This document shows, piece after piece, positions 14,827 through 38,398 of a stretch of 64,000 bases of DNA (within the stretch, counting starts at the first letter, position 1; the number at the start of each line of letters is the position of its first letter). Below the pieces are notes generated by a model. It did no database searches and was not told the DNA's origin. It saw only the letters and a program-made list of their open reading frames with translations. Made by a program: the position numbers and the translations under genes. The DNA is from Thiohalocapsa sp. (lineage in GTDB: Bacteria > Pseudomonadota > Gammaproteobacteria > Chromatiales > Chromatiaceae): NCBI GenBank assembly GCA_021736785.1, contig JAIPFF010000004.1, positions 62,001-126,000 on the forward strand, given 5' to 3'.

Positions 14827-15783
14827 TTGAAAGCGTCATCGCCGATCGTCATTCAGACTCCCCCCGACATTGCGTTCGTGGTGGCCGCCGGCCGCTCCGG
14901 GTCCACGCTCATCTACAAGACACTGTGCCTGCACCCGGAGATCTGCTACATCAACAATGTCGTCACCGCGATGCCGGGATGGCCCGTGCTTTCGCTATTG
15001 AATCGCTTGGCGCGCAAGCACGTTGCACTGAAGACGCGGGCCTGGTTCGAGGATAGCGGTCAGGCACATGGCGTGCAGCGAGACTATTTGCGCAAGCTGG
15101 TGCCGATGCCCCGCGAGGGCGAGAGCTTCTACAACAAGGCGGGCATCCCCTGCTTTCCGCCGGACGGCTTCGCTCTCTCCGAGCCCGATCTGCGCAAGGT
15201 CCGTCGCCACTTCGCCAAACTGCTGCACTATGGCGGCGGCAAGCTGGTGTTGAGCAAGCGCATCGCCAACAACCGCCGCTTGCCGTTGCTCAAGGCCGCG
15301 TTCCCCGACGCGCGCTTCATTCACTTGGTGCGCGACGGCCGCGCGGTGCTTTACTCGCTCTTGAATAGCCCGCGGGTCCAGTGGCGGGACGAATGGGCCG
15401 CGCAGATGAACCTGCCGTCCGCGGATTTCGACGATCCACGGACACTGACCGCCGCCGCCCACGGCTGGCTCAACAGTGTCCAACGGGTGGAAGCGGCACT
15501 CGCCGACGTCGACGAGTCACGGATTCACAGACTGCGCTACGAGGCGTTTCTAACCGACCCGGTGGCGGCGACCCAGGCAATGACCGACTTCCTGTCCCTC
15601 GGGCCGAGCCAGGCACACTTGGACGCCGTGAGATCGGTCATCGTCTCGGCCGGCGGCGGGGGATGGCGCAAGGGTTGGACGGCGGAGCAGCTCGCCGTCA
15701 TCGAGGGCGTGCAGGGCGACGCACTGACGCGTTACGGCTACGAGCTGCAATCGCGGCCACCGACACGACACGCGTCGCAATGA
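14827..15783 (+). CDS. Sulfotransferase family protein
   Basis: This 318-residue enzyme should transfer a sulfuryl group from PAPS. The 5'-phosphosulfate loop is [17 protein letters not shown] (about residues 19-35) and the 3'-phosphate-binding part is [20 protein letters not shown] (about 161-180), in the right order and spacing for the sulfotransferase 1/3 families. The start is TTG at 14827 with AAAAGG 4 nt before it; no ATG or GTG lies close to the start of similarity. The 281-nt gap in front of it (14546-14826) shows no gene. The position between glycosyltransferase, phosphodiesterase-like and sugar-nucleotide genes suggests that the product glycan or lipid is sulfated. Confidence 0.82.
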
Positions 15784-29643: not shown

Positions 29644-30351
29644 ATGAATCAGCCAACCCCCAATCCCGTTTTCCTCGTCGTCGACGCCTTCACGCCGACC
29701 CGATATGCGCTCAAGCTGCAGTTGAAACAGTTTGGTGCGCGGGTCAGCACGGCCAGCTCGGCCGAGCAGGCGCTGGCGTGCATCGCCGACGATCCGCCGG
29801 ACGCGATCTTCGCGGACCGTGTCCTGCCGGGCATCAACGGCCTGGAACTGATGCAGTTGCTGCAGCGCGACGCGGCGACTGCGCGGATACCGTTCATTAT
29901 CTGTTGCCCGGACTCGCACTGGCCGCTGCGTGCCCTGGCGCAGGAGCTCGGCGTGCTGGCGGTCGTGGAGCGTGACAACGCGGCGCAGACACTGCCGGAC
30001 ATCGTGCGTCGGCTGCGCAGCGCCGAGCCCGGCGGCGAACGCCGGGAGCCGCCCCCAGCGCCGGCGGCATCGATACGCGCAGGCGAAGCGGGAGCGCCGG
30101 CGCTAGCGCGATCGGCGCCGCGCCCGCAACACCCGCCAAGCCGCGGACAGCCGGCGGCCTCGCGCCCCGAAGCGCCGCCCGCGCGCGACCTTGCGCCGGA
30201 CGCAGCGCGCACGCCGCTCCAGTCCAGCCTCCCGCAAGCACTCGGAACCCTTGCGCAGCGCAGCCCTTCCGGGGTTCGCCGCGATGCCAAATACATGGCC
30301 ATCGGGGCTGCCTTTGCCTGCGTCGGCTTCGTGTTGCTGAGCCTGTTTTGA
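29644..30351 (+). CDS. Degenerate receiver domain with C-terminal membrane anchor
   Basis: This 235-residue protein begins with a CheY-like receiver domain (residues 8-125). The phosphorylation aspartate is present (D58 in AIFADRVLPGINGLEL), but the usual acidic pair is reduced to one residue (VVDAF, D14) and the conserved lysine is replaced (VLAVVERDN). A disordered Pro/Ala/Arg-rich linker of about 90 residues follows, then one hydrophobic helix at the very C-terminus (AIGAAFACVGFVLLSLF), a tail-anchor arrangement. No output domain is present. The ATG at 29644 has no clear ribosome site. It is divergent from pgl across 333 nt (29311-29643) in which I see no other feature. Confidence 0.72.
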   Translation: MNQPTPNPVFLVVDAFTPTRYALKLQLKQFGARVSTASSAEQALACIADDPPDAIFADRVLPGINGLELMQLLQRDAATARIPFIICCPDSHWPLRALAQELGVLAVVERDNAAQTLPDIVRRLRSAEPGGERREPPPAPAASIRAGEAGAPALARSAPRPQHPPSRGQPAASRPEAPPARDLAPDAARTPLQSSLPQALGTLAQRSPSGVRRDAKYMAIGAAFACVGFVLLSLF

Positions 30352-30583: not shown

Positions 30584-30943
30584 ATGCCAGAATCGATGCA
30601 AGAGATCATGAATCCCGGCACCGCGCATCACGACCCCGAGTTCCCGGATGCCCCCGCGGAATGGAGTCGAGAAACCGCGCATGGCGCGGCGAGGGCGGAC
30701 CAGGTCGAACTGACCGACGATCATTGGACGGTGATACGCGCGCTGCAGCACTTCTTCGCGGATCGCGACAGCCCGAATGTCCGAGAGCTGCACGACGCCC
30801 TCGACGAGCGCTTCCACGCGAAAGGCGGGCTGAAGTATCTCTACGGCATCTTCCCCGGCGGGCCTGTGGCGCAAGGCTGCCGCTTCGCCGGCCTGCAGGC
30901 ACCTGCGAGCGCCGTCGACAAATCCTTCGGCAGCGTACAGTAA
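30584..30943 (+). CDS. DsrC/TusE-like protein lacking the C-terminal cysteine
   Basis: This 119-residue protein matches the DsrC/TusE/RspA family: VELTDDHWTVIRALQHFFAD, SPNVRELHDALDERF, LKYLYGIFPGGPVAQGCRFA. DsrC has two cysteines 11 residues apart at its C-terminus and TusE keeps only the last one. Here the upstream one is present (C99 in QGCRFAGL), the last is alanine (A110), and nine residues (VDKSFGSVQ) extend beyond the normal end. It therefore cannot form the DsrC trisulfide or act as a TusE thiol relay in the usual way, and may be regulatory like RspA. ATG at 30584 follows AGGAG. A weak TTGACG promoter element lies at 30509. It stands alone. Confidence 0.82.
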   Translation: MPESMQEIMNPGTAHHDPEFPDAPAEWSRETAHGAARADQVELTDDHWTVIRALQHFFADRDSPNVRELHDALDERFHAKGGLKYLYGIFPGGPVAQGCRFAGLQAPASAVDKSFGSVQ

Positions 30944-31067: not shown

Positions 31068-31310
31068 CTAGCCCTTATCGGCGCGACCCTCTTGTGCAGC
31101 GGTCGGAGGTGCCGAGTGTGCGGTCTCGCCTTCTTCGGCATCCGGAAAGCGGCGGGCATCGCGCACCTCCACATCGTCGTCCATCAGGATGCGCTGACCA
31201 TCGCCGTCGAGGTCGTCGAATTGGCCGCTGCGCGCCGCCCAGAACAGGACGCCAACGGCGACCAAGCCGAGAATGATCATGCCCGGGATCAGGCCGTAGA
31301 TGACTTCCAT
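31068..31310 (-). CDS. ccoS: cbb3-type oxidase maturation protein CcoS
   Basis: This 80-residue protein is needed to insert cofactors into cbb3 oxidase. It has one membrane helix (IPGMIILGLVAVGVLFWAAR, about residues 8-27) followed by the family motif SGQFDDLDGDGQRILMDD. The polar tail is a little longer than average. It is the last gene of ccoG-ccoH-ccoI-ccoS and follows ccoI by 101 nt. Confidence 0.93.
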   Translation of the reverse strand: MEVIYGLIPGMIILGLVAVGVLFWAARSGQFDDLDGDGQRILMDDDVEVRDARRFPDAEEGETAHSAPPTAAQEGRADKG

Positions 31311-31411
31311 AGCAACCGTTGCAAACTGCGTTGGGGCCGGGTTGTGCGTTGCGATCGGCGCTCGGGCCGCGCGCCGGGCCTAAGCCGACTGCATCGCAGC
31401 GAGGCGCGGGC

Positions 31412-34003
31412 TCAGCCGGTACCGGCGGATGACCGGCGCGACGGGCGTTTGCGAAACAGCGTCCGGATGCGCGCCGAGTTGCCGATCACCGCGAGCGAGC
31501 TGAGCGGCATGGAGACCGCCGCGACCAGCGGCGTAATCATCGCCGCCATCGCCAGCGGCACCATGATCGTATTGTAGGCAAAGGACAGCCCGATGTTCTG
31601 CCGGATGGCGCGCAGCGTCCGGCGCGAGAGCAGTGCCGCGTCGTGCACGCGTCCGAGCTCGTTGCTCATCAGAACAATGTCCGCGCTGGCGATGGACACG
31701 TCCGTGCCGCTGCCGACGGCGATGCCCACATCCGCGCGCACCAGCGCCGGCGCGTCATTGATGCCGTCTCCGACCATCGCCACCCGATGCCCGCCGCGCT
31801 GCAGTTCGCCGATGACACGGTCCTTATCCTCGGGCAGCACCTCGGCGATGACCTCGATTCCGCCGAGCTCGGCGGCGATGCGCTCGGCCGCCGCGCGACG
31901 GTCGCCGGTCAGCAGCGTCACCCGCAGCCCGTCGTCACGCAACCGCTGCACGGACTCTGCGGCATCCGCGCGCAGCCGGTCGTCGATGACCAGGCGCAGC
32001 ACTTGCAAGCCGTCTATGGCGCAATGCACGACGCTCGCTTGGCTTGCGCGGCCCGGCTCGGCACCTCGGTCGGGATACCGCCCGGGCGCCCCATCGGCAT
32101 CCGGCCAGTCCGCCAAGGCAACGCCGTTGCGCCGCAGCCACTCGGCGGTGCCGATCACCACCGCGCGCCCGTCGACATGGCCGGCAATGCCGGCCCCCGC
32201 GACGACCCGAACGTCTTTCACCGCAAGACGCCGATAGCCGAGCGCCGCCTCGTCGGCAAGCGCGGTTACCGCGCGCGCGAGCGGGTGCTCGGACAAACGC
32301 TCGAGCGCGGCGATTGCCGTCAAATCGCGTCTGCGGGTCTCGTCCATCGCCGTGGCGCTGTCGGCGTGCCATTGTCCGAAGGCATCGCTCACCGCGGTGA
32401 CCGCCGGACGTCCCTCGGTGACCGTACCGGTCTTGTCCAGCACATAGTGATCGATGTCCGACAGCGTCTCGAAGACCGCACCGTTCTTGATCAGAATACC
32501 CTCGCGCGCGCCCAGCCCGGAGGCAACCGCGATGGCCATCGGCGTCGCCAGTCCGAATGCGCAGGGACAAGTGATGATCAGCACCGCGGTGGCGGCCATC
32601 AGCGCCTTCTCGAAGTCTTGCTGCACCCAAAATGCGAAGGTCAGCGCCGCCAGCGTCAGTGTCACGGCAACAAACCACGGGACGATGCGATCGGCCATGC
32701 ACTGGATCGGGGCCTTGCTCGCCTGGGCGTCCTCGACCAGCTTGATGATTCGCCCGAGCGCGCTGTCGCGCAGGACGGCCGATACCCGCACCTGCAGCAC
32801 GCCGGCACCGTTCAGCGTGCCCGCGGAGACCCGATCACCCGTCCCCCGGGGAACCGGCCGGGACTCGCCTGTCAGCATGGATTCATCGATGCTGCTCTCG
32901 CCCTCGGCGACAACGCCGTCGGCGGGCACCGTCTCGCCCGGACGGACCAACATCAGGTCGCCTTCTCGCAGCGCACGAATCGGCAGCACGGCCTCCGACC
33001 CGTCGCGGATCACGGTCGCCACCTTCGGCTGCAGATCGAGCAGGCGCTGCGTAGACGACACCGCTTGGCGTTTGGAGATCGCCTCCAGGTAGCGCCCGAC
33101 CAGAATCACGAACAGGAAATTGACGACCGTGTCCCAGTAGACGTGCCCGCTGCCCGTGATCGTGACATACAGCGAATAGAGATAGGTGATGCTGGCGCCG
33201 ATGGCGATCGGCAAATCCATGGACAGGCTCAGCCTGCGCAATCCGAGCCAGGCGCCGCGATAGAACGGATAGCCGGAGTAGAGCAAGGTCGGCGTCGCAA
33301 TCGCGAAACCGATCCAGTGGAACATATCGCGGAACTCGCCCTGATCGGCGCCGCTGTAGAGCGCGATCGAGATCCACATGAGGTTCATCATACCGAAGGC
33401 GGCGAAGGCCATGCGGTACAGCAGCGCCCGGTTTTGGCGCTGCAGCGAGCCTTCGGCGACCTGCGGATCGAACGGCAGCGCCGCGTAGCCGAGCTCGCCG
33501 AGCCGGCGCAGAATGGCCGACAGGGGCAGTTTGCCGTTATCCCACTTCACGCGCAGCCGGCGCCCGGTGAGATTGACGCGGGCCTCCGCGATGCCGGGCA
33601 TCGCCTTCAGGCCGTTCTCGATCAGCCAGACGCAGGCGGCGCAGTGGATGCCTTCGACCAGCAAGTTGATCTCGCGGCTGTCGGCCAGACTGTCGACGAA
33701 TTCCTGTTGGACCTCGTCGAGGTCGTAGAGGGCAAGTTGCTTCGGCAGCGCGGGCGGCGGGCCGAGGATCTCGCCGTCCGGCGTGCGGCGATAAAAGCCC
33801 TCCAGGCCCGCGGCATGGATGGCCTGACACACCGCCTTGCAGCCGGTGCAGCAAAACACCCGCTCGGCACCGGCCACGCTGGCGGTCTCGCGCACGGCCG
33901 CGGGCGCCTCGAGGCCGCAGTGGAAACAGCGGGCGTCGCCGTCATCCGCGGCGCTCGCGATGCCGCCGGCGTTCAGCTCGGCCTCTTCCAGCGTGGCGCT
34001 CAA
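31412..34003 (-). CDS. ccoI: Copper-exporting P-type ATPase for cbb3 assembly (CcoI/FixI)
   Basis: This 863-residue pump moves copper across the inner membrane for oxidase assembly. The N-terminal cysteine-rich region (CFHCGL, FCCTGCKAVC) is typical of CcoI, then a heavy-metal domain with GIHCAACVWLIENGL. P-type signatures follow: LTGESRPVPRGTGD (actuator), the CPC membrane motif in TCPCAFGLATP, the phosphorylated Asp in VLDKTGTVTEGRP, and MVGDGINDAPALVRADVGIA. About eight membrane helices are visible. The start is TTG at 34003 behind GGAGCGAG. The family FixI/CcoI has slow turnover and serves assembly, not resistance; the gene order ccoH-ccoI-ccoS supports that role. Confidence 0.95.
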   Translation of the reverse strand: MSATLEEAELNAGGIASAADDGDARCFHCGLEAPAAVRETASVAGAERVFCCTGCKAVCQAIHAAGLEGFYRRTPDGEILGPPPALPKQLALYDLDEVQQEFVDSLADSREINLLVEGIHCAACVWLIENGLKAMPGIAEARVNLTGRRLRVKWDNGKLPLSAILRRLGELGYAALPFDPQVAEGSLQRQNRALLYRMAFAAFGMMNLMWISIALYSGADQGEFRDMFHWIGFAIATPTLLYSGYPFYRGAWLGLRRLSLSMDLPIAIGASITYLYSLYVTITGSGHVYWDTVVNFLFVILVGRYLEAISKRQAVSSTQRLLDLQPKVATVIRDGSEAVLPIRALREGDLMLVRPGETVPADGVVAEGESSIDESMLTGESRPVPRGTGDRVSAGTLNGAGVLQVRVSAVLRDSALGRIIKLVEDAQASKAPIQCMADRIVPWFVAVTLTLAALTFAFWVQQDFEKALMAATAVLIITCPCAFGLATPMAIAVASGLGAREGILIKNGAVFETLSDIDHYVLDKTGTVTEGRPAVTAVSDAFGQWHADSATAMDETRRRDLTAIAALERLSEHPLARAVTALADEAALGYRRLAVKDVRVVAGAGIAGHVDGRAVVIGTAEWLRRNGVALADWPDADGAPGRYPDRGAEPGRASQASVVHCAIDGLQVLRLVIDDRLRADAAESVQRLRDDGLRVTLLTGDRRAAAERIAAELGGIEVIAEVLPEDKDRVIGELQRGGHRVAMVGDGINDAPALVRADVGIAVGSGTDVSIASADIVLMSNELGRVHDAALLSRRTLRAIRQNIGLSFAYNTIMVPLAMAAMITPLVAAVSMPLSSLAVIGNSARIRTLFRKRPSRRSSAGTG

Positions 34004-34032
34004 TCACTCGCTCCCGCGTGCGGGGACTTCGG

Positions 34033-34557
34033 TCAGGGACGTGCCACGCTGACGCGCAGACTCACGGAGTACTCGGCGTCACCGTCGCGCACGGCTACAG
34101 CGGTATCCCAGACCCCCGCCAGCGGGAACACCACCTCGGCGGTATAGCGCCCGCGCCCTTCTTCGATCATCGGCCGCGAAAAATCCCGCGTCGCGTCCGA
34201 GGGGCGATAAGCCAAGTAGGTCACTTGATCCGGCGAGACGGGTTGCCCCGCCTTGTCGACGACGACGTAGTAGACCTTCGTCGGCGTTTGCGCGGCAACC
34301 TCGGCCGGCACGTCGATGCGCATCGTCCAGCCGGGCCCTTCGGCCATGCGCGAAACGATCATTTGCTCGACATCCTGCCCTTCCTCGTAGTAGTCCTTGG
34401 AAACCAACCCGGGGTTCGTGGCGATGGCCAGCACCACCATCGTGATGTTGACGCCCAAGACCACCACCACGAGCCCGATCCAGCCGATGACCCACGGGCT
34501 GCGCCATGCGGAAGTCGGTTGCGCCGGCGCGGCGCCGACATTGCTCATCTCGTTCAT
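34033..34557 (-). CDS. ccoH: FixH/CcoH family cbb3 assembly protein
   Basis: This 174-residue protein stabilises early cbb3 subunit assemblies. It has one N-terminal membrane helix (WVIGWIGLVVVVLGVNITMV), then DYYEEGQDVEQMIVSRMAEG typical of FixH, and a periplasmic beta-rich domain with YLAYRPSDATRDF and FPLAGVWDTAVAVRDGD. Length is close to family average. It starts 8 nt after ccoG ends. Confidence 0.92.
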   Translation of the reverse strand: MNEMSNVGAAPAQPTSAWRSPWVIGWIGLVVVVLGVNITMVVLAIATNPGLVSKDYYEEGQDVEQMIVSRMAEGPGWTMRIDVPAEVAAQTPTKVYYVVVDKAGQPVSPDQVTYLAYRPSDATRDFSRPMIEEGRGRYTAEVVFPLAGVWDTAVAVRDGDAEYSVSLRVSVARP

Positions 34558-34564
34558 ACTTTAT

Positions 34565-35995
34565 CTACCGCCGCGGTCCGAAGAACGCGCTTTCCCGTTC
34601 AGTGGAGATATCACGCCCGTCCGGCAGCACCGCCTTTGCGTGGAAGATCACCGGAACCGTCTCGGACGGCAGATCTTTCCGCGCGATCTTCACGAACACG
34701 ATGGCCGGCGAAACTTCGCCGTGCTTGACCTGGAACGGCTCATCCGCGCCGACCAGGGTGATCGGCGCGGGACTCTCTGCCGAGATCGTGACCTGCAAGT
34801 CGTCGTTGGACTTGTTCAGCATCTTGAGCGTGTACTTGTTCTGTATCGAGCCGTCGCTCAACAGCACGAACAGCGGCGCTCGCTCGTGCAGCACTTTCAG
34901 CTCGATAGCCGACAGCGTGGTGAAGCCGTACAGGATACCAGCCAGCGCCACCGTCAGTATGGCGGTGTAGACCCAGACCCTGGCGCGCAGCAACAACGGC
35001 TTGACCGGCTTGCCTTCCAGTTCATCCAGCGAGGCGTAGCGAACCAGACCGCGCGGACGCCCGACCTTGTCCATGACGGCATCACAGGCATCGATGCAGA
35101 GACCGCAAGTGATGCAGCCTTCCTGCTGTCCTTGACGGATATCGACACCGGTCGGACACACCGCCACGCATTGATTGCAATCGACGCAATCGCCGGTGCT
35201 GCGGTTGTCCTCGGTCTCGCCCTTCTTCATGCGCCCGCGCGGCTCGCCGCGCGCCACGTCGTAGGTGGGCACGACCGTGGTCTTGTCCAGCATCACACCC
35301 TGGATGCGCGCATAGGGGCAGAGCCAAAAACAAGTCTGCTCGCGCAGCCAGCCGGCGAGCACGTAGGTGCCCACCATAAACAAGGCAACCGCCCCGTAGG
35401 CGGCGCCGTTTGCATTGCCGACGAAGAAGTCACGCCATAGCGGGCCGGCGCCGTAGAACCAGGCGACGAAGCTGAAGCCGGTCAGAAACCCGATCAGCAG
35501 CCAAATGCCGTGCTTGACACTGCGCACACCGATCCTGCGCCCGAGCGGCGCCTGATCCAGCTTCCGCCGCTGCTGGGGGCTGCCCTCCAGCTTCTCCTCG
35601 ATCCAGGTGAACACGTCCGTCCAAACCGTCTGGAAGCAGAAATAGCCGCAGTACACCCGCCCCACCAGGGCCGTCGCCACGGCAAGCAAAATCGCGAAGA
35701 ACAGCAGCAGCAGGGACAGCATCCAGAAATCCTGCGGCAGCACCGTGGCGCCGAACAGGTGATACTGGCGGTTGGGGATATCGAACAACACCGCTTGGCG
35801 GCCGTTCCAGCTAAGGTACGGCCCCAGAAAGAAGATCAGCCAGACCGAGGATGCGATCCACTTGATGCGTCGCCACTTTCCGGGAATGCGCTTGGCGTGG
35901 ATGGTTTCGCCGCCGGTGTTGACGTGCCAGTGCTCCGCCTCGGCATAGATATCGTCCATCGCGGCACGCTGGTCCGCGTTTTGGTTTGCTGTCAT
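34565..35995 (-). CDS. ccoG: cbb3 oxidase accessory protein CcoG (RdxA/FixG)
   Basis: This 476-residue membrane protein has two [4Fe-4S] motifs and reduces copper for cbb3 assembly. About five helices are present. The ferredoxin part reads CVDCNQCVAVCPTGVDI and CITCGLCIDACDAVMD (about residues 260-300), and VYCGYFCFQTVWTDVF is the conserved CxxxCP-type region, here CGYFC. The C-terminal Ig-like domain (LNKSNDDLQVTISAESP) is periplasmic. ATG at 35995 begins the conserved sequence; upstream open frame is not conserved in type. It is the first gene after a terminator that closes the ccoNOQP transcript, so it probably has its own promoter in 36003-36184. Confidence 0.94.
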   Translation of the reverse strand: MTANQNADQRAAMDDIYAEAEHWHVNTGGETIHAKRIPGKWRRIKWIASSVWLIFFLGPYLSWNGRQAVLFDIPNRQYHLFGATVLPQDFWMLSLLLLFFAILLAVATALVGRVYCGYFCFQTVWTDVFTWIEEKLEGSPQQRRKLDQAPLGRRIGVRSVKHGIWLLIGFLTGFSFVAWFYGAGPLWRDFFVGNANGAAYGAVALFMVGTYVLAGWLREQTCFWLCPYARIQGVMLDKTTVVPTYDVARGEPRGRMKKGETEDNRSTGDCVDCNQCVAVCPTGVDIRQGQQEGCITCGLCIDACDAVMDKVGRPRGLVRYASLDELEGKPVKPLLLRARVWVYTAILTVALAGILYGFTTLSAIELKVLHERAPLFVLLSDGSIQNKYTLKMLNKSNDDLQVTISAESPAPITLVGADEPFQVKHGEVSPAIVFVKIARKDLPSETVPVIFHAKAVLPDGRDISTERESAFFGPRR

Positions 35996-36184
35996 CTCGA
36001 ATGTCCTAACTGCGCGACAACTTGGGAGCAGGGGCGCGGCCCGATGGCGCACCGACTCCCGCCTTCGAATCGGAAATTGCAGCGCTGACTTGTCGTCCAA
36101 CACCTGCCACTTCGACAGCGCGGCGCCGTCGAAGCTCCTTGCGTGCTGCCGGCGAGCAGCCTATCCCCCGACCCGCCCGTGCAG

Positions 36185-36215
36185 AAAAAAAAAGGGAGAT
36201 GCAAGATCCCCCTTT
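36185..36215 (-). terminator. Strong rho-independent terminator after the oxidase structural operon
   Basis: On the minus strand AAAGGGGGAT-CTTGC-ATCTCCCTTT forms a 10-bp stem (one G-U pair) with a 5-nt loop, followed by a run of T. It lies 28 nt after the 44-codon ORF and separates ccoNOQP from ccoGHIS. Confidence 0.9.
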
Positions 36216-36242
36216 TCAGTCACTCCTCGTCTCCGCCGATCT

Positions 36243-36377
36243 TTATTGGTGCTCGCCTTTGTGCCGCTCCGCGTCCTCGTTCATCAGCTTCACGACTTTG
36301 AAGCCGAGATAGATGAAGATGACGACGGCGATCACGACGCTGATTATCGATCCCCAAAACACCGCATCTAGGTGCAT
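36243..36377 (-). CDS. Small single-span membrane protein in the cco operon (44 residues)
   Basis: An ATG at 36377 with AGGAGG 5 nt before it opens a 44-codon frame to TAA at 36243. The product starts MHLDAVFWG, has one membrane helix (SIISVVIAVVIFIYLGFKVV) and a charged tail (KLMNEDAERHKGEHQ). It lies 153 nt after ccoP and just before the operon terminator. Position and shape resemble small accessory subunits of cbb3 oxidases such as CcoM, but I cannot show sequence similarity by eye. The strong ribosome site and terminator position make it a real gene. Confidence 0.75.
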   Translation of the reverse strand: MHLDAVFWGSIISVVIAVVIFIYLGFKVVKLMNEDAERHKGEHQ

Positions 36378-36530
36378 GGCATCCTCCTGGTCTGAGTCTT
36401 TTTCATCGCGGGCCGGTTCCCCGCGAGCCGGGGAGCGGCCGCGACGGACGGCAGCACGGCCACCGCAGGATCGGCGTTGCCGGCCCCGAAGCGCCCGATG
36501 CCTCGCGGGCGCTCGTTGCCGGCCACCGTA

Positions 36531-37451
36531 TTATTTTCCGCCGCCGAGTTGGTGGACGTAGACGGTCAGCATTTTGATTTGGTCCGGCGAAAGCTTGCCC
36601 TCCAGCTGCCCGACCTGCGCAAACGCCGGCATAACCGCATCGCGGGTCTGCTCGACACCTGGCTGGTTAACGCCGTACGTGATCGTGTGCTTGGCGCTCT
36701 CGTAGCCGCCCGGCTCGAACCGCCAGATGCTGTCTGTCAGGTTCGCGGCGCCAACGCTCACGATGGTGCCGTCGGGCAACTCCGCGAGAACGCCGTTGCC
36801 GGTTGTCCCGTGACAGGCGTTGCAGCCCTTGGCGTTGTACAGGGCCCAGGCCTCGTCGCTGCCCTTGCCTCCTTCGGCCAGTTCGACGGTGAGCGTCGCC
36901 AGGGTGTCGATCTCTTCCGGCGTCAGAATCGACTGGTGAGCCGTCATCGCCCCTTTGCGCCCGTTGGTGACCGACTCCTGGATCTTCGCCAGCGAGCCGC
37001 CGTAGAGCCAGTCGTCATCGGCCAGCACCGGATAACCGGGGTTACCTTGGCCGCCGCTGCCATGACAGCCTGCACAGTAGTCGCCGAACAACACCTTGGA
37101 CGACGCAAGGGTGTACTGGGTCAGACCGGGATCCTCCAGAATCTGCGCCGGCGTCAGCTGAGCGATCTGCTCGTCGTATTGGGCACGGACCGCCCGCACC
37201 TGCTCCATGCCCTTCTCGTACTCCTTGATGGACGTCCATCCGAGGATGCCCTTGGTGTACCCGTCGCCCTGTTCCGGCTGATAAGGCAGCGGCCACGTCG
37301 GATACAAGATGCTGTACAGCACAACCCAGCCAATGGAGACCCAAAAAGCGATCATCCACCAGCGCGGAGGCGGGTTCTTCAGTTCGCGCAGGTTGTCGTC
37401 CCAAAAATGCCCGGTGTTGTTCTCACCCGGGAACGGGTTATTTTCCGCCAT
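36531..37451 (-). CDS. ccoP: cbb3 oxidase subunit III, diheme cytochrome c
   Basis: This 306-residue subunit passes electrons from soluble cytochrome c towards CcoO/CcoN. An N-terminal segment DDNLRELKNPPPRWW precedes the membrane helix (MIAFWVSIGWVVLYSILYP). The two heme-c sites are CAGCH (about residue 127) and CNACH (about 213), with distal methionines expected later (AVMPAFAQVG). ATG at 37451 lies inside the end of ccoQ (14-nt overlap). Confidence 0.95.
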   Translation of the reverse strand: MAENNPFPGENNTGHFWDDNLRELKNPPPRWWMIAFWVSIGWVVLYSILYPTWPLPYQPEQGDGYTKGILGWTSIKEYEKGMEQVRAVRAQYDEQIAQLTPAQILEDPGLTQYTLASSKVLFGDYCAGCHGSGGQGNPGYPVLADDDWLYGGSLAKIQESVTNGRKGAMTAHQSILTPEEIDTLATLTVELAEGGKGSDEAWALYNAKGCNACHGTTGNGVLAELPDGTIVSVGAANLTDSIWRFEPGGYESAKHTITYGVNQPGVEQTRDAVMPAFAQVGQLEGKLSPDQIKMLTVYVHQLGGGK

Positions 37452-37644
37452 CGTTTTCTCCGATGTCCGCTTCGTCTTCTTCGAACGGGATATGCTTGCG
37501 GGATTCAAGCTTGTCCCGATTCTTGGGCCGAAATACCTGGAAATACGCCACGACCATCAGGACGAAAATGACGACCGTAAGGATCGTGCCGACCCAGTCG
37601 GTGGCCGTCATCGCCGCCCAATCGGTTTGGAAGTAGTCCAGCAT
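37438..37644 (-). CDS. ccoQ: cbb3 oxidase subunit CcoQ
   Basis: This 68-residue protein has one membrane helix (WVGTILTVVIFVLMVVAYFQ) followed by VFRPKNRDKLESRKHIPFEE, the typical CcoQ/FixQ ending. It stabilises the complex. It begins 1 nt after the ccoO stop (TAA-C-ATG) and overlaps ccoP by 14 nt, so translation of the three is coupled. Confidence 0.93.
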   Translation of the reverse strand: MLDYFQTDWAAMTATDWVGTILTVVIFVLMVVAYFQVFRPKNRDKLESRKHIPFEEDEADIGENDGGK

Positions 37645-37645
37645 G

Positions 37646-38398
37646 TTACTGGCGATACTCCACGCCTGGCTCCAGTTTGGCCATCGTGCCGAGAACCTGC
37701 AGATAGGCGACCATTGCGTCCATCTCGGTCTTGCCCTCGACCAGTGCGGGGGCGTTCTCGATATCGGCGTCGTGATAAGGGACGCCGATCGCACGCAAGC
37801 CCTTCATGTGGCGCTGCATCCTCTTGCCCTTGACCATGCGATCGTCGAGCCACGGGTAATTGGGCATCACCGATTCCGGCACCACGGAGCGCGGCGCCCT
37901 AAGGTGCTGGCGGTGCCATTCGTCGGAGTACTTTCCGCCCAGGCGAGCCATATCCGGCCCCGTGCGCTTCGAGCCCCACTGGAACGGGTGGTCGAACATC
38001 GATTCCGACGCCAGCGAATAGTGCCCGTAGCGCTCGCGCTCGTCGCGGAACGGGCGGACCATCTGGGAATGACACAGATAGCAGCCCTCGCGTTGGTAAA
38101 CGTCGCGGCCCGCCAGCTCAAGAGCCGTGTACGGGCGAACGCCGTCACCCGGCTTCCAGTTCCACTGCTCTTTGCCGTCCCCGCTCACCGTGACGATCGG
38201 CTGCGAGGCGGGCTCCTTCGCATTCCATACGATTTCGGGGAAGCGGTTCGCCTCCTCGGTGCTCTTCAAATAGAAGAGCGGAACGATTTCCACGATACCG
38301 CCGACTGAAAGCGCCAGTGCCAGCACGATCAGCAAGCCCCAGATGTTGCGCTCCATGCGCTCCTGCAGTCCCTTCGGCGGCGTATTGTTATCTGCCAT
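37646..38398 (-). CDS. ccoO: cbb3 oxidase subunit II, monoheme cytochrome c
   Basis: This 250-residue subunit has an N-terminal membrane anchor ([20 protein letters not shown]) and one heme-c site, [20 protein letters not shown], with the flanking [17 protein letters not shown] typical of CcoO/FixO. MPNYPWL provides the likely axial methionine. Length is normal. It starts 22 nt after ccoN. Confidence 0.96.

What the first reader, a model, noticed from the sequence alone, without database searches (positions are those of the whole stretch)
30584..30943. DsrC-like protein with only the upstream cysteine and a tail extension
C99 corresponds to the internal DsrC cysteine; the terminal one is A110 and nine residues follow. 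DsrC (two Cys), TusE (last Cys only) and RspA (none) are the described classes, so this is an uncommon pattern. It could regulate or carry one sulfur species without trisulfide chemistry.
Basis: partly seen in the sequence, partly recalled or inferred. Interest (0 to 1): 0.55.

Follow-up and report, generated by a model that had tools for sequence, protein, structure and literature searches.

The report
DsrC-like protein with conserved FGSV tail
This is a real, widely conserved relative of the sulfur-carrier protein DsrC that lacks the cysteine that carries sulfur and has a fixed short tail instead; it is found mostly in bacteria with the DsrAB sulfur-oxidation enzyme, so it is probably a partner-binding helper of that pathway rather than a sulfur carrier.

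Summary
Window 30584-30943 (+) encodes a 119-aa DsrC-family protein. Its only cysteine, C99, sits at the inner DsrC position (CysB); A110 replaces the sulfur-carrying cysteine (CysA), and nine residues follow. It is not a local mutation: in the 80 closest named loci CysB is Cys in 78, CysA is A, S or T in all 80, and the end is FG[SA][VI]x in 79. A tree built without the arm still unites the tailed proteins (27 of 61 rows, 99/95). Distant members keep the tail but have Cys at CysB in only 3 of 10, so the tail is the more constant feature. Orthologues go with dsrA (23 of 27 holders; 87 of 274 genomes overall; p = 2e-9). No shared operon partner was found. Best reading: an accessory of the reverse-Dsr pathway in which the DsrC arm has become a docking peptide and C99 is at most a thiol switch. 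Fold, distribution and loss of CysA are shown; docking and function are inferred.

The parts
30584..30943 (+). dsrC-like gene of the FGSV-tail clade, 119 aa plus stop
   Evidence: orthologues.
30641..30664 (+). codons for FPDAPAEW (residues 20-27), conserved clade motif in place of the usual DsrC N-terminal stretch
   Evidence: A2: F20, P24, W27 invariant, P21 and A23 at least 90%. Pfam match starts at profile position 16.
30878..30880 (+). codon TGC of C99, the CysB position and the only cysteine
   Evidence: alignment to 1yx3; Cys in 78 of 80.
30911..30913 (+). codon GCC of A110, the CysA position, never Cys in the 80 loci
   Evidence: A 64, S 13, T 3 of 80.
30914..30940 (+). codons of the C-terminal tail VDKSFGSVQ (residues 111-119)
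   Evidence: FG[SA][VI]x in 79 of 80; synonymous codon changes; low AlphaFold confidence, compatible with a flexible arm.
29644..30351 (+). response-regulator receiver-domain gene, upstream neighbour; recurrent in some Chromatiaceae loci, not claimed as a functional partner
   Evidence: PF00072; same-strand upstream neighbour in 15 of 81 loci.

Best explanation
Shown: a stand-alone DsrC-fold paralogue that forms one clade, lacks CysA, carries a conserved xFGSVx C-terminal tail and occurs mainly in genomes with dsrA. Inferred: it is an accessory of the reverse Dsr pathway that does not carry sulfur on its arm. The flexible arm, lengthened by the tail, works as a docking peptide for a Dsr-pathway protein, most likely one that DsrC itself visits (DsrAB, DsrEFH or DsrMK), so it would modulate or compete with DsrC traffic. 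C99, at the base of the arm, serves at most as a single redox- or persulfide-sensing thiol that can link it to a partner.
For: DsrC fold: the seven best PDB matches are all DsrC, TusE or Dsr gamma chains. Clade without the arm columns: 99/95 support. Tail constant across gamma-, beta- and alphaproteobacterial records while C99 varies in the wider clade. CysA never Cys in 80. dsrA link: 23 of 27 holders over the cut-off against 64 of 247 non-holders, p = 2.1e-9; 33 of 41 named holders given to over the cut-off and 2 more with fragments. Tail of low confidence in the model (last block mean pLDDT 46). Sulfur binding by A. vinosum DsrC is restricted to CysA.
Against: No partner gene is conserved next to it, and the shifting context gives no direct link to dsr genes. 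Holders without dsrA exist: G219 and G127, and G310, G317, G327, G332, G340, G342. L109 lost the FGSV letters. The near-invariance of C99 in the window's own subclade suggests that the thiol matters there more than this reading needs. The Fisher test counts related genomes as independent.
Confidence: 0.4

Rival explanations
1. One-cysteine sulfur carrier: C99 takes a persulfide from a TusA-type donor and hands it on, and the tail picks the acceptor.
For: C99 is Cys in 78 of 80. In six loci (L088, L097, L101, L102, L106, L113) a two-domain TusA-type gene lies directly upstream on the same strand (by motif; Pfam TusA for L113).
Against: The inner cysteine of A. vinosum DsrC is irrelevant for sulfur binding (PMC3397948 passages). 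The wider clade has Cys in only 3 of 10 members. The TusA neighbour is in 6 of 80 loci only.
Confidence: 0.22
2. Transcription regulator, as has been proposed for DsrC-family proteins (a putative function in transcription regulation is cited in PMC7787665, passage read); C99 would sense redox or sulfane sulfur.
For: In the tree without the arm it falls with the Cys-less KGGY and KGEH paralogues at 92/80 support. A response-regulator gene is upstream in 15 of 81 loci.
Against: Median pI 5.18 over the last 105 residues of 80 sequences, though true DsrC is as acidic. No DNA target was looked for.
Confidence: 0.15
3. Partner of a heterodisulfide-reductase-like electron-transfer subunit outside Dsr, such as Isp2 of the sulfur-linked Hyd/Hyn hydrogenase.
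For: A hydrogenase large-subunit gene lies upstream in 7 of 81 loci (Pfam for L050), with a CCG-domain protein beside it in L050.
Against: Separated by unrelated genes and not seen in the other 74 loci, the window included; synteny among related species explains it.
Confidence: 0.08
4. Degenerate DsrC copy or sequencing error.
For: Loss of the key cysteine.
Against: The same state in 80 of 80 loci, fixed tail with synonymous codon changes, open frames.
Confidence: 0.01

Closest known systems
DsrC (TIGR03342 / PF04358, e.g. A. vinosum DsrC, PDB 1yx3)
   Same: Fold, inner cysteine, C-terminal arm, co-occurrence with dsrA
   Different: No CysA, nine-residue tail ending in FGSVQ, different N-terminal stretch (FPDAP), gene not beside dsr genes
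TusE
   Same: Family and size
   Different: TusE has the terminal and lacks the inner cysteine; this has the reverse
RspA / Cys-less DsrC paralogues
   Same: No CysA; the Cys-less KGGY and KGEH paralogues fall nearest in the arm-less tree
   Different: A cysteine at CysB and a different C-terminal motif
Phage dsrC_1 (SUP05 viruses, PMC4164917)
   Same: Lacks the second C-terminal cysteine
   Different: dsrC_1 also lacks a 7-8 residue insertion; no viral contig matched this clade, and the two phage-record hits end at query residue 111, before the tail

Membership tests
DsrC/TusE superfamily (PF04358) | Profile match over cut-off | tested here: met
   73.0 bits against 24.9; TIGR03342 68.8 against 53.5.
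DsrC/TusE superfamily (PF04358) | DsrC fold | tested here: met
   Foldseek on the AlphaFold2 model: top seven are DsrC-family chains, TM 0.54-0.61 by query length; only the first is under E 0.001.
DsrC proper | Both CysA and CysB | tested here: not met
   CysB only in the window; CysA absent in 80 of 80.
DsrC proper | Accepts sulfur from DsrEFH, substrate of DsrAB | not testable with these tools
   Needs biochemistry.
TusE | Terminal cysteine; TusE equivalog profile | tested here: not met
   No terminal Cys; PRK11508 TusE model 51.4 bits against a cut-off of 191.
RspA (recalled definition: no arm cysteine) | No arm cysteine | tested here: not met
   C99 is Cys in 78 of 80, although 7 of 10 more distant tail-clade members have Ser or Met.
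Phage dsrC_1 | Lacks CysA and a 7-8 residue insertion | tested here: not met
   CysA absent, but the alignment to 1yx3 shows only one-residue gaps.
FGSV-tail clade (defined here) | One clade when the arm columns are left out | tested here: met
   27 of 61 rows, 99/95 support, L109 included. Holding the 26 tailed rows together without L109 was rejected (p-AU 0.003): L109, which lacks the motif, lies inside.

The most novel reading that the evidence does not exclude
DsrC-fold paralogues have evolved paralogue-specific C-terminal arm motifs (PTGCV, KGGY, KGEH, CHSC, PRAWSTG, FGSV), each addressing a different partner; the FGSV type is a sulfur-free competitor or gatekeeper that occupies the DsrC site of a reverse-Dsr enzyme and so controls sulfur flux.
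Probability: 0.2. Interest if true: 0.7.

Novelty: new variant of a known kind. Interest (0 to 1): 0.45.

Why it matters
Sulfur oxidizers carry many unexplained DsrC paralogues (nine PF04358 matches in this genome). If arm motifs address partners, these paralogues become readable from sequence, and the FGSV type would be a DsrC relative that acts in the reverse Dsr pathway without carrying sulfur on its arm. It is also a caution for annotation: the window protein passes the TIGR03342 'sulfur relay' cut-off although it lacks the sulfur-carrying cysteine.

Tried and rejected
Sequencing error or local mutation: rejected by 80 of 80 loci. Viral origin: no viral contig and only two distant phage-record hits. 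Plasmids: 15 records matched; the ten listed are all under 37% identity and end at query residue 111. Operon partner: none constant in 81 loci or in 20 further neighbourhoods; a CoA-binding-like gene (recognised by motif only) next to L109 and L152 is two loci and was not pursued. Promoter and terminator scan: nothing found. The PHROG match (phrog_17249, unknown function) added nothing. Rfam was not searched; the second structure job and the VIA-align look were not used. Papers: searches listed nothing that I recognised as a description of a CysB-only DsrC with this tail (titles and abstract starts, plus passages of the papers cited); the key review (Venceslau 2014) and Stockdreher 2014 are not held, so absence from print is not shown.

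Full report
What is there. The reading frame 30584-30943 (+) gives 119 aa with one cysteine, C99. It passes the DsrC family cut-offs. Aligned to A. vinosum DsrC, C99 pairs with the inner cysteine (CysB) and A110 with the terminal, sulfur-carrying one (CysA); nine residues follow. An AlphaFold2 model from 60 aligned clade sequences (mean pLDDT 80.9) has five helices; the N-terminus and the tail are of low confidence. Its seven best PDB matches are all DsrC, TusE or Dsr gamma chains.

Is it more than chance? Yes. A genome-contig scan found 283 encoding stretches and kept the best 80. In these, CysB is Cys in 78, Ser in 1 and Thr in 1; the CysA position is Ala 64, Ser 13 and Thr 3; 71 have exactly one Cys in the last 105 residues, 7 have two and 2 have none. 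79 of 80 end in FG[SA][VI]x and one (L109) does not. Codons of the tail vary synonymously, for example all four Val codons are used. Among 56 related genomes, 20 loci score above 100 bits, with Cys at CysB in 19 of 20.

The tail outlasts the cysteine. Ten more distant members (L007, L029-L035, L038, L137) keep a [SG]FG[STI] tail, but CysB is Cys in 3, Ser in 6 and Met in 1. A tree of 61 family members with the arm cut off still places 26 tailed rows plus L109 in one clade (99/95; the window's own subclade 17 rows, 100/99). With the arm included it is 100/98. Few columns were available and many other forks are unresolved. Holding the 26 tailed rows together without L109 was rejected (p-AU 0.003), which fits L109 having changed its tail inside the clade. 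The 61 rows are my selection, not a census.

Paralogues. The window's genome has nine PF04358 matches. C-terminal classes among the proteins read include PTGCV, KGGY, KGEH, CHSC, PGEEA and FGSV. Two further groups (L130/L134, ending PR[AV]WSTG; L113b, ending PMPQPDT) have CysB without CysA. So the CysB-only state occurs in several groups.

Distribution. Of 274 genomes of the class, 27 have an orthologue above 110 bits, and 23 of these 27 have dsrA over the cut-off, against 87 of 274 overall (Fisher p 2.1e-9). Of the other four, G241 and G297 have dsrA fragments under the cut-off, G219 and G127 none. Of 41 genomes behind named loci given to (of 80 loci), 33 have dsrA over the cut-off, 2 have fragments and 6 have none. 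Most dsrA genomes (64 of 87) lack the orthologue, so it is optional. In 16 genomes behind named Chromatiaceae loci there is exactly one match above 150 bits each.

Neighbourhood. No gene is constant. In 15 of 81 loci a response-regulator gene lies upstream, in 7 a hydrogenase large-subunit gene (Pfam), and in 6 a two-domain TusA-type gene (Pfam for L113). In the window, convergent cbb3-oxidase assembly and structural genes follow. Twenty other neighbourhoods, some of the wider clade, showed no common partner on inspection.

Function. In A. vinosum, DsrC binds sulfur at the penultimate cysteine only; Cys100 is irrelevant for that (PMC3397948, passages read). Without CysA this protein cannot make the DsrC disulfide or trisulfide within one chain. 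What is conserved is the fold plus an arm ending in FGSV, in genomes that mostly hold dsrA. I infer a docking accessory of the reverse Dsr pathway with C99 as an optional thiol switch. This last step is inference; the partner is unknown.

What is known. A phage DsrC group without the second C-terminal cysteine is described (PMC4164917, passages), and one phage DsrC protein in PMC8190135 (passages) has only the first motif. The Thiocapsa bogorovii genome paper lists several DsrC-family genes without assigning functions in the passages I read (PMC10892978).

Noticed in passing
L088, L097, L101, L102, L106, L113 upstream of the match: A tandem two-domain TusA-type gene directly upstream of the FGSV-tail gene in six loci, with a single-domain TusA-type gene on the other side in at least three of them (L101, L102, L113).
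   Followed up: partly
L130, L134 (matches at 1501 onward) and L117 at -2384..-2054 from the match: Another DsrC paralogue group with only the inner cysteine and a conserved end PR[AV]WSTG.
   Followed up: no
L002 (G000:C73:30462-30767); dsrA at G000:C73:26669-27880: A Cys-less DsrC paralogue ending RKGGY lies about 2.6 kb from dsrA in the window's genome.
   Followed up: no
G000:C19:11017-11301 and 14951-15298: A two-cysteine short DsrC paralogue and a tailed paralogue (end GFGTAR, Met at CysB) lie about 4 kb apart.
   Followed up: no
L109 and L152: A CoA-binding-like gene (recognised by motif only) sits next to a tailed DsrC gene in two unrelated loci.
   Followed up: no
window 31068-38398 (-): Genes for cbb3 oxidase assembly and subunits (FixS, metal ATPase, FixH, FixG, FixP, FixO by Pfam), convergent with the DsrC-like gene.
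   Followed up: partly
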